A stretch of 48,141 nt of DNA from a virus. This document shows, piece after piece, positions 7,293 through 41,122 of the stretch. The stretch's first letter is position 1; each line of letters begins with the position of its first letter. The DNA lies in IMG/VR virus record IMGVR_UViG_3300017971_000377, positions 1 through 48,141 of that record; one strand, written 5' to 3'. The translations under genes were made by a program, and so were the position numbers. The notes under the pieces are model-generated. The model saw only the letters and a program-made list of their open reading frames with translations. It did not search any database and was not told the DNA's origin.

Positions 7293-9203
7293 GTGAAAGT
7301 TGTTTATGAGGATGGTAAATTTAAATGTTTCTCATCATATGATGAGAAACATTTACCTAAAAGTGCAGGGTGGTGGTGGGACTCCGCCAACAAATATTGG
7401 TTTACTAAAGAAAAACATAAGGCACTTTTATTAAAGGATTATTTCACTCCATCAGCCTCGTCTGAGGCCAATCGCTGTTTTCAACCCCAACCTCAGTGCA
7501 ATTCAATTGCATACAATGACAAAATACCATGTCCTGAGGGAATAAGATATTTTCCATTTCAGGAAGAGGGAATAAGATATTCCCTTTCTCGAGAGGGGAC
7601 CCTTAACGCGTCAGAGATGGGGTGTGGCAAATCAATAATGGCATTAGGTCTTATTAATATTGATGAGACTCTTCGGAATATATTAATTATTTGTCCAGCG
7701 TCTTTGAAAATCAATTGGCAACGCGAATCTGAGAAATGGTTGGTTAGACCATTTGAGATTTATGTTATAAATAATAATAAAATTTCTCCAAATGTAAATG
7801 CAAATTTGATTATTGTCAATTATGATCGCCTAAAAGGCGATATTCTTAAATATATTATGAAACGCAATTGGGATTTATTAATTGTAGATGAAGCGCATGC
7901 CCTGAAAAACGGGGCGGCACAGAGAACAAAAAAAATTCTGGGAGTGCCGCCTACATGGCGTTATCATAATGGAAGCTGGAAACAGATTAAACCACGAACC
8001 TTTGGTGTAATCGACCAATGTCGAAAAAAGGTGTTCTTAACTGGAACACCTGTTCTTAACCGACCCGTCGAACTATTTTCGCTTATCTCAGCCTTGGATT
8101 CGAAAAATTGGAGATCACGTTCAAAATTCGAAACAAGGTATTGCAATGCTCATATGGGAAAATGGGGGTGGGATAACAAGGGTGCTAGCAATATTGACGA
8201 GCTTAACTTCAAACTTAGATCGTCGATTATGTTTCGAAAAACAAAGGCGGAGGTTTTGCCTGATTTGCCTCCCAAAACCAGACAAATTATAGTTCTGCCT
8301 GGTGACAGTAAGGTGAAATCATTGATTAAAGAAGAAAAAAAATTAAAGATCGATTTTTCGGATATCGAGGCGTTAACACCTGTGTCAACGGAGTTTCAAC
8401 AGTTGTCAGAATTGCGTAAACGGTTAGCAATTGCGAAATTGCCTATGATAATCGAACATATAGAGAATATATTAGAAGGTACTGAGAAGATTGTTATTTT
8501 TGCGCATCACCATGAGGTCATCGATGCGCTTCATGGCCATTTTCAGGCATCGGTAAAATTAGACGGTAGGAACAGTTTGGAGGCTAAGCAAAAAGCAATC
8601 GATGCATTTCAAGATGGTCAAGCTAGGATTTTTATTGGAAGCATCCAGGCCGCTGGTGTTGGAATTACACTTACCGCGGCATCGCATGCGGTATTTGCAG
8701 AATCGGATTGGGTCCCGGCGAATTTGAGCCAAGCTGAAGATCGTCTGAATCGAATTGGTCAAAAAAATGCTGTTTTGATCCAACATTTAGTAGTGGATGG
8801 CACGTTGGATGCTAGAATGGTTCAGATAGTAGTGGAAAAACAAAAAATTATTGATGGTATTGTGAAACCAGTAGAGTTGATCGAACCTAAGAAATCCGAA
8901 CCACCAAAATCTAAACCATCAAAATCTAAACCTGGTAATGGTAAAAAAAATAATAACATTACTAACGAGCGCAGGGAGGCACTTTGTTGTGCATTGATTA
9001 GTTTAGCTGGAAAATGTGACGGCGCTCGTCAGCAAGACGGGTGCGGGTTCAATAAGCTGGATACTAATTTTGGTACTAGTTTAGCAAAGCGGGGATCAGA
9101 ACGTCCCCTGACTGACGAGGAGTTTTTAGCTGCGTTGAAAATGATTAAGAAGTACAAACGTCAGATTGAACCTAATTTGTTTGATTTGATTTATAAAAAT
9201 TGA
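7293..9203 (+). CDS. SNF2/SWI2-family DNA translocase (helicase superfamily 2)
   Basis: A 636-residue SNF2-type ATPase. Motif I is SEMGCGKS (Lys 113), motif II is VDEAHALKN (DEAH at 199-202), motif III is LTGTPVLNRPVEL, and motif VI is QAEDRLNRIGQ, the SNF2-typical form. A Pro/Lys/Ser-rich linker (repeated KSKP) at about 530-550 leads to a C-terminal module with a conserved CDGARQQDGCGFNKLDT segment seen at the end of other phage helicases. It moves on duplex DNA and may remodel protein-DNA complexes or D-loops beside RecA. The start is GTG with AAGGAG 8 nt upstream. It carries a 17/19 match to the 19-bp palindrome at 7495-7513. Confidence 0.88.
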   Translation: MKVVYEDGKFKCFSSYDEKHLPKSAGWWWDSANKYWFTKEKHKALLLKDYFTPSASSEANRCFQPQPQCNSIAYNDKIPCPEGIRYFPFQEEGIRYSLSREGTLNASEMGCGKSIMALGLINIDETLRNILIICPASLKINWQRESEKWLVRPFEIYVINNNKISPNVNANLIIVNYDRLKGDILKYIMKRNWDLLIVDEAHALKNGAAQRTKKILGVPPTWRYHNGSWKQIKPRTFGVIDQCRKKVFLTGTPVLNRPVELFSLISALDSKNWRSRSKFETRYCNAHMGKWGWDNKGASNIDELNFKLRSSIMFRKTKAEVLPDLPPKTRQIIVLPGDSKVKSLIKEEKKLKIDFSDIEALTPVSTEFQQLSELRKRLAIAKLPMIIEHIENILEGTEKIVIFAHHHEVIDALHGHFQASVKLDGRNSLEAKQKAIDAFQDGQARIFIGSIQAAGVGITLTAASHAVFAESDWVPANLSQAEDRLNRIGQKNAVLIQHLVVDGTLDARMVQIVVEKQKIIDGIVKPVELIEPKKSEPPKSKPSKSKPGNGKKNNNITNERREALCCALISLAGKCDGARQQDGCGFNKLDTNFGTSLAKRGSERPLTDEEFLAALKMIKKYKRQIEPNLFDLIYKN

Positions 9204-12809: not shown

Positions 12810-13142
12810 ATGAGAACTGAAATAATTCAAAAAGTCATTTGCGATCGATGTGGGCGACAGATGACGGAAGTAAAAGATGTTGGTTCTAATGGTAATGGTT
12901 CAGGAGGGGAAAATCGTCCTTCAGATCTTCAAGTTGTAGTTAACGGAGAGGTGGTGTTGCAGTATGATGATCTTTGTGATATTTGTGTAGGAAAAGGAGA
13001 AAAGATGATTAACCATATGGTTAATCATATGCAAAAGATCGATCTCGGCAAACGGGGCAAACGGGGCAAACGGGGCAAAAAGGCAAATGGTCAATCAGTT
13101 TCGTCTGAGATAGGACAGCCTCAGCAACAAGCAACAGCATAG
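12810..13142 (+). CDS. Zinc-ribbon protein with basic Gly-Lys-Arg repeats
   Basis: A 110-residue protein with CDRCG near the N-terminus and CDICVGKGEK about 45 residues later, a likely four-Cys zinc site. The C-terminal part carries a GKR tripeptide repeated from a 9-bp DNA repeat (13046-13078), then a Gln-rich tail. The basic repeat suggests nucleic acid binding. It is the first gene after the 12739 promoter, with CGGAGC upstream of the ATG. Confidence 0.7.
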   Translation: MRTEIIQKVICDRCGRQMTEVKDVGSNGNGSGGENRPSDLQVVVNGEVVLQYDDLCDICVGKGEKMINHMVNHMQKIDLGKRGKRGKRGKKANGQSVSSEIGQPQQQATA

Positions 13143-25061: not shown

Positions 25062-25255
25062 GAAAGAGGCCGAATAAAAAAATATACAATCTTGGAATTA
25101 CCTGGTGTTTAAAATGTGAAAAGATGACTAATGATAATATATGGAAAAAAATAAAAGAAGGAATTTTCGTTGGTCAGTGCAATTGGTGCAAGACAAGAAT
25201 GGTTGCCTATATGTATGAAAAAGGTAAAATTGTTGCTGACAAAATAAATGATTGA
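25058..25255 (+). CDS. Small zinc-ribbon protein
   Basis: A 65-residue protein with CLKC and CNWC about 26 residues apart, a likely four-Cys zinc ribbon. It overlaps the previous stop (ATGA). The 19-bp palindrome begins exactly at its stop codon. Confidence 0.6.
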   Translation: MRKRPNKKIYNLGITWCLKCEKMTNDNIWKKIKEGIFVGQCNWCKTRMVAYMYEKGKIVADKIND

Positions 25256-25273
25256 GTGCAATTGAATTGCACT
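25255..25273. promoter_or_regulatory. 19-bp palindrome AGTGCAATTGAATTGCACT
   Basis: A perfect 9-1-9 palindrome placed directly before the ribosome binding site (AAGGAG) of the gene at 25286. The same sequence with a C at the centre is found at 39175 and 40297. It could be an operator or, as RNA, a 7-8 bp hairpin that controls translation or mRNA stability. No T-run follows, so it is not a terminator. Confidence 0.7.
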
Positions 25274-25285
25274 TAAGGAGATTTT

Positions 25286-25546
25286 ATGGCTGCGGTCATT
25301 AGAAAAGTACCCTCATTATATGGATTAATTGAGGTGGAGCGAGACGAAGATCCGCCTCGAATGCTTAATGTGGGGGTCATTATTAATGGCGGATATATGG
25401 TAGAGAATTTTGTCAATATGAGTATTTTACCGTTAGAATTGCAACAGATGATTAGAAATGCTCTTTTTGATAGAAGATCTATAGATAATAGGATTGACAA
25501 AAAGACAAAACAAGAACTTTATGAGGCTTCTAAAAAGAAAGAATAA
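25286..25546 (+). CDS. Hypothetical protein behind the 19-bp palindrome
   Basis: An 86-residue protein, no family recognised. Its N-terminal half is beta-like (SLYGLIEVERDEDPPRMLNV) and the C-terminal half is a charged helix. AAGGAG lies 7 nt upstream. Sharing the palindrome with the two beta-helix genes suggests common regulation. Confidence 0.6.
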   Translation: MAAVIRKVPSLYGLIEVERDEDPPRMLNVGVIINGGYMVENFVNMSILPLELQQMIRNALFDRRSIDNRIDKKTKQELYEASKKKE

Positions 25547-39172: not shown

Positions 39173-39195
39173 CCAGTGCAATTCAATTGCACTGG
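39173..39195. promoter_or_regulatory. 23-bp palindrome containing AGTGCAATTCAATTGCACT
   Basis: A perfect 11-1-11 palindrome, 43 bases upstream of the beta-helix gene at 39239. The inner 19 bp are identical to the copy at 40297. No T-run follows. Confidence 0.75.
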
Positions 39196-39238
39196 TATAA
39201 GGGGAAAGAGCTATACGATTTAGAGTTAGGAGAGGAAG

Positions 39239-40036
39239 ATGAGCATTAAGAGTTTTAAGGACATTATGAACCTTCATGGGCTAATAGGCCAAGACGAATC
39301 TGATTGGTATCAGCACCAAAACGGCGGCGGGTGGATAAAAAAGACAGCATATGTTAACAAGACAGTATATGTTGGGCCTTATGCAATAGTTTATGGTAAG
39401 GCCTTAGTATCTGGTAAGGCAAAAATTAATGGGACGGCTCAGATTTATGGAACGGTTCGAATTTGGGATGAAGTAAAAGTTTATGGCAATGCAATAGTAG
39501 GTGGAAATGCGGTACTGTTTGACAATGTAGAAATTTATGACAATGCAAAAATTTATGATAATGTAGTAGTAGTTGATGAGGCAATGGTAGCCGGCGAAGC
39601 TATCATATATGATAATGTTCGAGTATATGATAATGCGCGAATTTATGGCAAAGCAAGGGCATTTGACGATGTACATGTAGGTAATAATGCAAGAGTATAC
39701 GAGAATGCAGTATTATTTCATAAGACAAAAATTCGTGGCAACGCATGTGTTTATGGCAACGCATGTGTTAAGGGTTCTAGCATTATTCGTGGTTATGTTC
39801 AAATTTGTGGTGAGGCAGAAGTTGTGGATAAAATTTATGAGGGAAATATCATAGTTTCAACCGCGACATATAAGGGATTGAAGACTAAAGACAATCAAAG
39901 TAAAAAAATTGAATCCAATTTAACACCTGAAGTACCTAAATATAATTCATCATGTCCTATTTGCGGGTCTCCGGCGCAAGATTTAATATTTAAAATTTAC
40001 TGTTCTAAGACAGGATGTCAAAATTATCATCCGTAG
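39239..40036 (+). CDS. Beta-helix hexapeptide-repeat protein with C-terminal zinc ribbon
   Basis: A 265-residue protein in three parts. The N-terminal cap is MNLHGLIGQDESDWYQHQ followed by NGGGW. Next come roughly 25 hexapeptide repeats (IYGNAKI-like, residues about 36-200) that should form a left-handed beta-helix. A zinc ribbon (CPICGSP with CSKTGCQNYHP) ends it. The His residue that acts in hexapeptide acyltransferases is not evident, so a structural or binding role is likely. The partner paralogue is at 40340. A ribosome binding site AGGAG lies 7 nt upstream. Confidence 0.78.
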   Translation: MSIKSFKDIMNLHGLIGQDESDWYQHQNGGGWIKKTAYVNKTVYVGPYAIVYGKALVSGKAKINGTAQIYGTVRIWDEVKVYGNAIVGGNAVLFDNVEIYDNAKIYDNVVVVDEAMVAGEAIIYDNVRVYDNARIYGKARAFDDVHVGNNARVYENAVLFHKTKIRGNACVYGNACVKGSSIIRGYVQICGEAEVVDKIYEGNIIVSTATYKGLKTKDNQSKKIESNLTPEVPKYNSSCPICGSPAQDLIFKIYCSKTGCQNYHP

Positions 40037-40045
40037 GAGAAAGAA

Positions 40046-40144
40046 ATGGTTATGCGTAAGAAAAAGTTCCCATCCGAGATTGATAAAATATTTCCTCTTT
40101 TTTTCTGGACTAAGTGTGATAAATGTTTTTGTGAATTCCGTTGA
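40046..40144 (+). CDS. Very small Cys-containing protein
   Basis: A 32-residue frame (MVMRKKKFPS start) with CDKCFC at its end and AGGAG upstream. It could be a real small protein or the 5' part of a broken gene continuing at 40151. Confidence 0.4.
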   Translation: MVMRKKKFPSEIDKIFPLFFWTKCDKCFCEFR

Positions 40145-40150
40145 GAGAAA

Positions 40151-40288
40151 ATGTGGAGAATTAAGAAATTTGAAGATCACAGTTGTAAGGTGTTTTTTTA
40201 TTTTTGTGTCGTTAATTATTATATTTGTACAAAATGTGCACCTACTCTTCTAGAACTTACAAAAATAAGACGTTGTTTATGCATATAA
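40151..40288 (+). CDS. Very small Cys-rich protein or gene fragment
   Basis: A 45-residue frame starting MWRIKKFEDHSCKV with CTKCAP and RRCLCI. GAGAG precedes the ATG. Together with the frame before it, it may be a decayed Cys-rich gene between the two beta-helix genes. Confidence 0.4.
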   Translation: MWRIKKFEDHSCKVFFYFCVVNYYICTKCAPTLLELTKIRRCLCI

Positions 40289-40296
40289 TATTAATT

Positions 40297-40315
40297 AGTG
40301 CAATTCAATTGCACT
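40297..40315. promoter_or_regulatory. 19-bp palindrome AGTGCAATTCAATTGCACT
   Basis: Identical to the inner part of the copy at 39173 and located 24 bases before the ATG of the second beta-helix gene, just 5' of AAGGAGG. Confidence 0.75.
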
Positions 40316-40339
40316 GACACAAGGAGGAAAGAAGAGAAA

Positions 40340-41122
40340 ATGGATTTTAGTCAGGTTATGAACCTTCATGGGCTAATAGGTCAAGACGAATCTGATTGGC
40401 ATCAACACCAAAACGGCGGCGGGTGGGTACAGAATATAGCTAGAGTTGAGCCTGCAGCATATATTGGATCCGAGGCAATAGTTTATGGTCATGCGCGAAT
40501 TTATGGCAAAGCGGAGGTGTACAATCAAGCTCGAGTATTCAACAGTGCACAAGTACATGGTCATGCTCAAGTATTTGATAATGCATGGGTTTACGGAAAT
40601 GCGGCAATATTTGATAATGCGAGAGTATTTGGATTTGCATCGGTTGACGATAATGCGAGAGTATATGGTGATGCAATAATACGTGACAATACACAAGTAT
40701 TTGGAAATGCGGAAGTTTATGATCATGTACAGATTGAAGAAAATGCAAGAATTTATGGTAATGCGCGAATTTATGGCCATGCAATGGTTTGTGATAATGC
40801 ACAAGTTTGTGATAATGCACAAGTTTATGGCAATGCAAGGGTCGGCGGTTCTAGCAGTATTGAAGAATATGTTGAAGTTTGTGGTTGTATAAAAATTGCA
40901 GACAATAAAAGATACAGGGGAAATATTGTAATTACTACTACTAATGATGATAAAAAGCGTACTCTTCTTATTAAAAAATCTACAGATGGACAGCCTAATC
41001 CGAAGAAAAAAATTGAATTATCTCAATATAATTCATCATGTCCTATTTGTAAATCACCAGCACAAGATTTAATATTTAAAGTTTACTGCTCCAAGGTGGG
41101 ATGTCAAAATTATCATCTGTAA
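40340..41122 (+). CDS. Second beta-helix hexapeptide-repeat protein with zinc ribbon
   Basis: A 260-residue paralogue of the gene at 39239. The cap (MNLHGLIGQDESDWHQHQ) and the zinc ribbon (CPICKSP with CSKVGCQNYH) are almost identical. The hexapeptide repeats between them have diverged strongly and are more regular (VYGNARI, VFDNAWV). That contrast suggests the two ends carry the conserved function and the repeats vary. The ATG at 40340 has GGAGG 12 nt and GAAGAG 4 nt upstream; the open frame further upstream runs through the palindrome and is not used. Confidence 0.78.
   Translation: MDFSQVMNLHGLIGQDESDWHQHQNGGGWVQNIARVEPAAYIGSEAIVYGHARIYGKAEVYNQARVFNSAQVHGHAQVFDNAWVYGNAAIFDNARVFGFASVDDNARVYGDAIIRDNTQVFGNAEVYDHVQIEENARIYGNARIYGHAMVCDNAQVCDNAQVYGNARVGGSSSIEEYVEVCGCIKIADNKRYRGNIVITTTNDDKKRTLLIKKSTDGQPNPKKKIELSQYNSSCPICKSPAQDLIFKVYCSKVGCQNYHL

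What the first reader, a model, noticed from the sequence alone, without database searches (positions are those of the whole stretch)
39173..41122. Palindrome-linked pair of beta-helix proteins with identical caps and zinc ribbons but divergent repeats
Both genes carry the same 19-bp palindrome upstream, almost identical N-terminal caps (LHGLIGQDESDW) and C-terminal zinc ribbons (CPIC...GCQNYH), yet quite different hexapeptide repeats. Conserved ends around a variable beta-helix suggest a modular binding protein whose repeats diversify. No catalytic His of acyltransferases is evident.
Basis: partly seen in the sequence, partly recalled or inferred. Interest (0 to 1): 0.65.

Follow-up and report, generated by a model that had tools for sequence, protein, structure and literature searches.

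The report
Paired phage beta-solenoids with matching ends
A phage carries two side-by-side genes for rod-shaped repeat proteins whose two ends are nearly the same while the rods between them differ; they belong to a widespread but functionally unknown family of phage proteins, here with an unusual zinc-binding-type tail.

Summary
Genes A (39239-40036) and B (40340-41122) each follow the same 19-bp palindrome. Their N-caps are 88% identical and their C-terminal Cys4 ribbons 86%, but their hexapeptide helices only 42%. That 42% is no more than the family background, since each helix scores 37-42% against unrelated phage relatives. A codon test shows that the ends share recent ancestry (cap P=1.5e-4), whereas the middles look synonymously saturated (P=0.25). 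The palindrome is not specific to the pair: a third exact copy precedes an unrelated ORF.

Both proteins belong to the known but functionally unassigned YdcK-type beta-solenoid family (PF18836; PHROGs 5070 and 7964). This family is widespread in phages, frequently in tandem, and modular: one of two cap types (YdcK-like, or HxHxNGGGW as here), 4-55 hexads, and an optional C-terminal module. Swapped repeat types under the same cap occur elsewhere. The zinc-ribbon tail was not found in any other member sampled. No shared helix histidine and no loop insertion was seen, which argues against acyltransferase or carbonic anhydrase activity.

Most likely this is a non-enzymatic, early-expressed scaffold or binding rod. 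Function and partner are not shown. The AlphaFold2 models have a suspect handedness.

The parts
39173..39195 (.). 23-bp perfect palindrome (core AGTGCAATTCAATTGCACT), predicted hairpin about 44 nt 5' of gene A start
39239..40036 (+). Gene A: 265-aa YdcK-type beta-solenoid protein with Cys4 ribbon
39260..39340 (+). Gene A N-cap (residues 8-34, HxHxNGGGW-type; first His is Tyr here)
39353..39820 (+). Gene A: 26 contiguous hexads (residues 39-194)
39950..40033 (+). Gene A C-terminal Cys4 ribbon (residues 238-265)
40297..40315 (.). 19-bp palindrome, second copy, predicted hairpin 24 nt 5' of gene B start
40340..41122 (+). Gene B: 260-aa YdcK-type beta-solenoid protein with Cys4 ribbon
40352..40432 (+). 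Gene B N-cap (residues 5-31)
40445..40894 (+). Gene B: 25 contiguous hexads (residues 36-185)
41036..41119 (+). Gene B C-terminal Cys4 ribbon (residues 233-260)
25255..25273 (.). Third exact copy of the palindrome, 12 nt before an unrelated 86-aa ORF (25286-25546)

Best explanation
Two tandem paralogues of a non-enzymatic beta-solenoid scaffold or binding protein. The N-terminal helix and NGGGW cap close one end of a rigid rod of about 8.5 triangular coils (25-26 hexads). A conserved C-cap closes the other end, and a flexible linker carries a Cys4 zinc ribbon as an anchor or recruitment module. The rod's outward residues differ between the two proteins, so they probably present different surfaces while sharing the same partner at the ends. 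Both genes lie on the same strand in a run of short non-structural ORFs and are probably co-regulated through the palindrome (an operator or a 5' hairpin). Shown by sequence: architecture, family, differing history of ends and middle, absence of a shared catalytic His. Inferred: scaffold/binding role, zinc binding, early expression, co-regulation.
For: Pfam B_solenoid_ydck above cut-off in both. Profile-to-PDB best match is YdcK 2f9c at 1e-26, and it reaches the GGW of the cap. Hexad register is unbroken with no loop insertion; no His is shared between the two helices (alignment). The ends versus middle codon test: cap 17/19, C-cap 15/20, ribbon 18/24, repeats 26/48. Tandem paralogues with conserved caps recur in other phages: 34 pairs, caps 88%, repeats 65%. 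Related genes in named phages sit near replication or early genes: Sfi19 helicase, Boilgate primase, LfeInf RecA, Aer_P220 upstream of RNA polymerase. AlphaFold2 gives a confident helical core (pLDDT over 90) and an N-terminal helix.
Against: No partner, expression or binding data exist. The ribbon is not matched to any zinc-finger family and is modelled below pLDDT 50. Model handedness conflicts with the YdcK homology. In other phages the repeats show recent unit amplification (91% identical codons), which is equally compatible with little constraint on the surface.
Confidence: 0.5

Rival explanations
1. A bactofilin-like polymer: the solenoids stack end to end through the conserved caps into filaments, and the variable middle is simply the filament shaft.
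For: Bactofilin Pfam match just below cut-off (25.2 versus 27.9 bits in A); some relatives are annotated as polymer-forming cytoskeletal protein; conserved ends would suit end-to-end stacking; AlphaFold2 models fit right-handed helices.
Against: No bactofilin among the PDB matches shown up to E=10 (best 60 of 87); YdcK is by far the best relative; the cap carries a helix and the C-end a linker and ribbon, which would obstruct stacking (inference).
Confidence: 0.17
2. An acyltransferase or gamma-carbonic anhydrase of the LpxA-like superfamily.
For: Hexapep Pfam match and weak LpxA, LpxD and carbonic anhydrase matches.
Against: All enzyme models score far below their cut-offs; no loop insertion in 25-26 hexads; no His shared between the two helices.
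Confidence: 0.06
3. A DNA mimic like the pentapeptide-repeat proteins that inhibit gyrase.
For: Rod shape; the AlphaFold2 models align with Qnr and AlbG.
Against: Net charge of repeats is +2.7 and -5.3 per 100 residues, family mean -3.2 (sd 3.6), far from the strongly acidic surface expected; the fold match may reflect only a general solenoid.
Confidence: 0.06
4. Weakly constrained repeat filler: the caps and tail do the work, and the hexads drift or expand by slippage because any hexad keeps the fold.
For: Repeats at family background and synonymously saturated; 4-55 hexads tolerated in relatives; adjacent identical 18-nt units in B.
Against: A and B differ by only one hexad in length and keep perfect register; orthologues conserve repeats as well as caps (L044/L046/L076).
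Confidence: 0.2

Closest known systems
YdcK (PDB 2f9c/2pig; NCBIfam NF040481; Pfam PF18836 B_solenoid_ydck)
   Same: Same hexad repeat, GGW at the N-cap, best profile match in the PDB; classed as left-handed beta-helix in PMC4671585.
   Different: Score far below the YdcK equivalog cut-off (65.8 versus 350); HxHxNGGGW cap instead of the AGxxGGWV cap; Cys4 ribbon not covered by the YdcK match.
PHROGs 5070 and 7964 (phage families, unknown function)
   Same: Both window proteins match at 1e-34 to 1e-48, as do most other phage members tested.
   Different: No function assigned; the C-terminal ribbon lies outside the matched region.
Phage 'DFGDGxGPVPAHxHxNGGGWV' and 'LKxxFPDATxETWHQHPNGGGWV' solenoid genes in IMG/VR
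   Same: Same cap motif and hexads, often in tandem.
   Different: C-terminal modules are absent or of another type; ribbon not seen.
Beta-helix domain of Svx-type secreted peptidases (NF040510)
   Same: Same HxHxNGGGWV motif followed by hexads; its LbH domain has no known function (PMC9266454).
   Different: Attached to a secreted peptidase; no peptidase in the window proteins.

Membership tests
YdcK-type beta-solenoid (PF18836) | Match above Pfam gathering score | tested here: met
   41.8 and 72.7 bits versus cut-off 30
YdcK equivalog (NF040481) | Score above NCBIfam cut-off 350 | tested here: not met
   54.5 and 65.8 bits
LpxA-like acyltransferases | Catalytic His in a conserved coil, loop insertion in the helix | tested here: not met
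   No His shared by A and B in the helix; unbroken 6-residue register
Gamma-carbonic anhydrase | Three zinc-binding His in the helix | tested here: not met
   No His conserved between the two helices
Bactofilin (PF04519) | Match above gathering score | tested here: not met
   25.2 and 20.3 bits versus 27.9
Left-handed beta-helix fold | Left-handed triangular coil | tested here: inconclusive
   Sequence relatives are left-handed, but the AlphaFold2 models fit right-handed helices (rmsd 2.4-4) and LbH chains only at rmsd of about 11-12
Zinc ribbon | Binds zinc through two Cys knuckles | not testable with these tools
   C-x2-C-x12-C-x4-C present in both; no Pfam family

The most novel reading that the evidence does not exclude
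The pair is part of a phage cassette system: constant caps and constant zinc ribbons frame interchangeable solenoids, giving one phage a co-regulated set of rods that hold different host targets (for example defence proteins) through the same ribbon-bound partner.
Probability: 0.1. Interest if true: 0.75.

Novelty: new variant of a known kind. Interest (0 to 1): 0.36.

Why it matters
The window gives a clean natural pair in which the ends and the middle have demonstrably different histories. That makes the question of what the ends hold constant and what the rods vary directly testable.

Tried and rejected
Searches for close relatives of the phage (recombinase, palindrome, ribbon, C-terminal tail) found no close kin; the cap search gave one relative, L008. 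So copy number across related phages could not be compared. Foldseek against the PDB and BFVD gave nothing with E at or below 0.001. The VIA second look gave many right-handed helices. Because AlphaFold2 is reported to give confident but unrealistic solenoids for repeat proteins (PMC11795689), I do not use the fold match as evidence. PADLOC gave nothing useful. Paper searches on phage solenoids found no study of this family. The palindrome as a recombination end of a cap cassette was rejected because the third copy has no cap gene. Palindrome as terminator: the only terminator-like call is on the minus strand at 40315-40297, at chance level. The HxH pair as a catalytic or metal site was weakened because gene A has Tyr in place of the first His.

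Full report
What is there. Gene A (39239-40036, 265 aa) and gene B (40340-41122, 260 aa) lie in tandem on the + strand of a 48-kb viral contig. The contig carries DnaB, primase, UvsX-like recombinase, NrdD and dUTPase genes. Each gene follows the same palindrome, exact at 39175 and 40297; at A it extends to a perfect 23 bp. It folds as a hairpin in RNA. A third exact copy at 25255 sits 12 nt before an unrelated 86-aa ORF. The palindrome was not found in IMG/VR (the window's own record may be left out of that scan). It is thus a shared element of this phage, probably regulatory, and not a mark of the pair.

Anatomy. Both proteins have an N-terminal helix and cap ending in NGGGW, 26 or 25 hexads without a break in register, a C-cap (VxGSSxIxxYVxxCG), a linker and a C-x2-C-x12-C-x4-C ribbon. 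They match Pfam B_solenoid_ydck and Hexapep above cut-off and PHROGs 5070 and 7964, which have no function. Their profile finds YdcK first in the PDB (1e-26).

Ends versus middle. Caps are 88% identical, ribbons 86%, helices 42%. Against 78 unrelated family members, A's helix averages 37% (sd 4) and B's 42% (sd 5), so the two helices are no closer to each other than to strangers. Their caps are 88% alike, against means of 38% (A) and 47% (B) to other members. Using the window's own codon usage, I asked how often identical residues would share a codon if synonymous sites were saturated. Cap: 17/19 observed, 9.6 expected, P=1.5e-4. Helix C-cap: 15/20, P=0.008. Ribbon: 18/24, P=0.02. Repeats: 26/48, 23.4 expected, P=0.25. 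The ends therefore share recent ancestry, while aligned hexads behave as unrelated or fully diverged. Either the middles were rebuilt from other hexads, or the ends were homogenised; without sister phages I cannot tell which.

The family. Extracted ORFs fall into two phage cap classes and one bacterial secreted class. The window's caps belong to the 'W-H-x-H-x-NGGGWV' phage class. Named phages often carry the YdcK-like cap (GGWI/GGYI...NLSQ) instead, also in tandem. Among 101 distinct closed ORFs, hexads number mostly 4-55; 48 have essentially no tail, and the rest carry several kinds of C-module; three have other Cys clusters (L183, L231, L234). The window's ribbon was not found in any other member. 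L074, L090 and L100 put similar caps over a different 'GGTFWGG/GGTIWGG'-type repeat. So modularity is real across the family.

How other pairs evolve. In 34 tandem pairs from other phages (many from related contigs, so not independent) caps are 88% and repeats 65% identical, but there the repeats use the same codons in 91% of identical residues, against 78% in caps. That is the mark of recent unit amplification, the reverse of the window pair. Between-phage orthologues (L044, L046, L076) diverge evenly in cap and repeats. So 'repeats diversify' is true of paralogues, not of orthologues over short times.

Function. No helix His is shared between A and B and there is no loop insertion, so the LpxA-like enzymes and gamma-carbonic anhydrases are unlikely. 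Charge does not suit a DNA mimic. Neighbours in several named phages place the family near early and replication genes, not tail genes. I commit to a non-enzymatic scaffold or binding rod with a ribbon anchor at 0.5; the binding step is inference.

Limits. The AlphaFold2 cores are confident, but their VIA alignments fit right-handed helices (rmsd mostly 2.4-4 A) and left-handed ones only at about 11-12 A. This conflicts with YdcK, which PMC4671585 lists as left-handed. AlphaFold2 is reported to give confident unrealistic solenoids (PMC11795689), so handedness stays open. The HxH conservation is partly built in by the search pattern; gene A itself has Tyr at the first His.

Noticed in passing
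1-119: A microsatellite of about twenty AAACAG units opens the contig; it could be a real repeat inside a truncated ORF or an assembly edge.
   Followed up: no
7325-7352: A perfect 28-bp palindrome (ATGTTTCTCATCATATGATGAGAAACAT) lies inside the 5' end of the helicase ORF; another 24-bp one lies at 13005-13028 beside a short tandem repeat (GGGGCAAAC).
   Followed up: no
L002:1579-6877: A 140-kb viral contig carries at least five tandem solenoid genes with near-identical YdcK-type caps and, in several, a shared long C-terminal domain (QSMYIMFSHTTKDLTKRENILQ...).
   Followed up: partly
L074:8206-9609, L090, L100: The same cap classes sit on a quite different glycine-rich GGTFWGG/GGTIWGG repeat, which has no Pfam or PHROG match in the case tested (L074).
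   Followed up: partly
L248:2605-2744: In Vibrio breoganii phages the solenoid gene's repeats are annotated as CRISPR spacers, probably a false call from the 54-nt repeat period.
   Followed up: no
L144-L246 (many): The HxHxNGGGWV cap also occurs in bacterial proteins that look secreted, including dockerin-like Ruminococcus proteins, suggesting a shared unexplained module in cell-surface enzymes.
   Followed up: no
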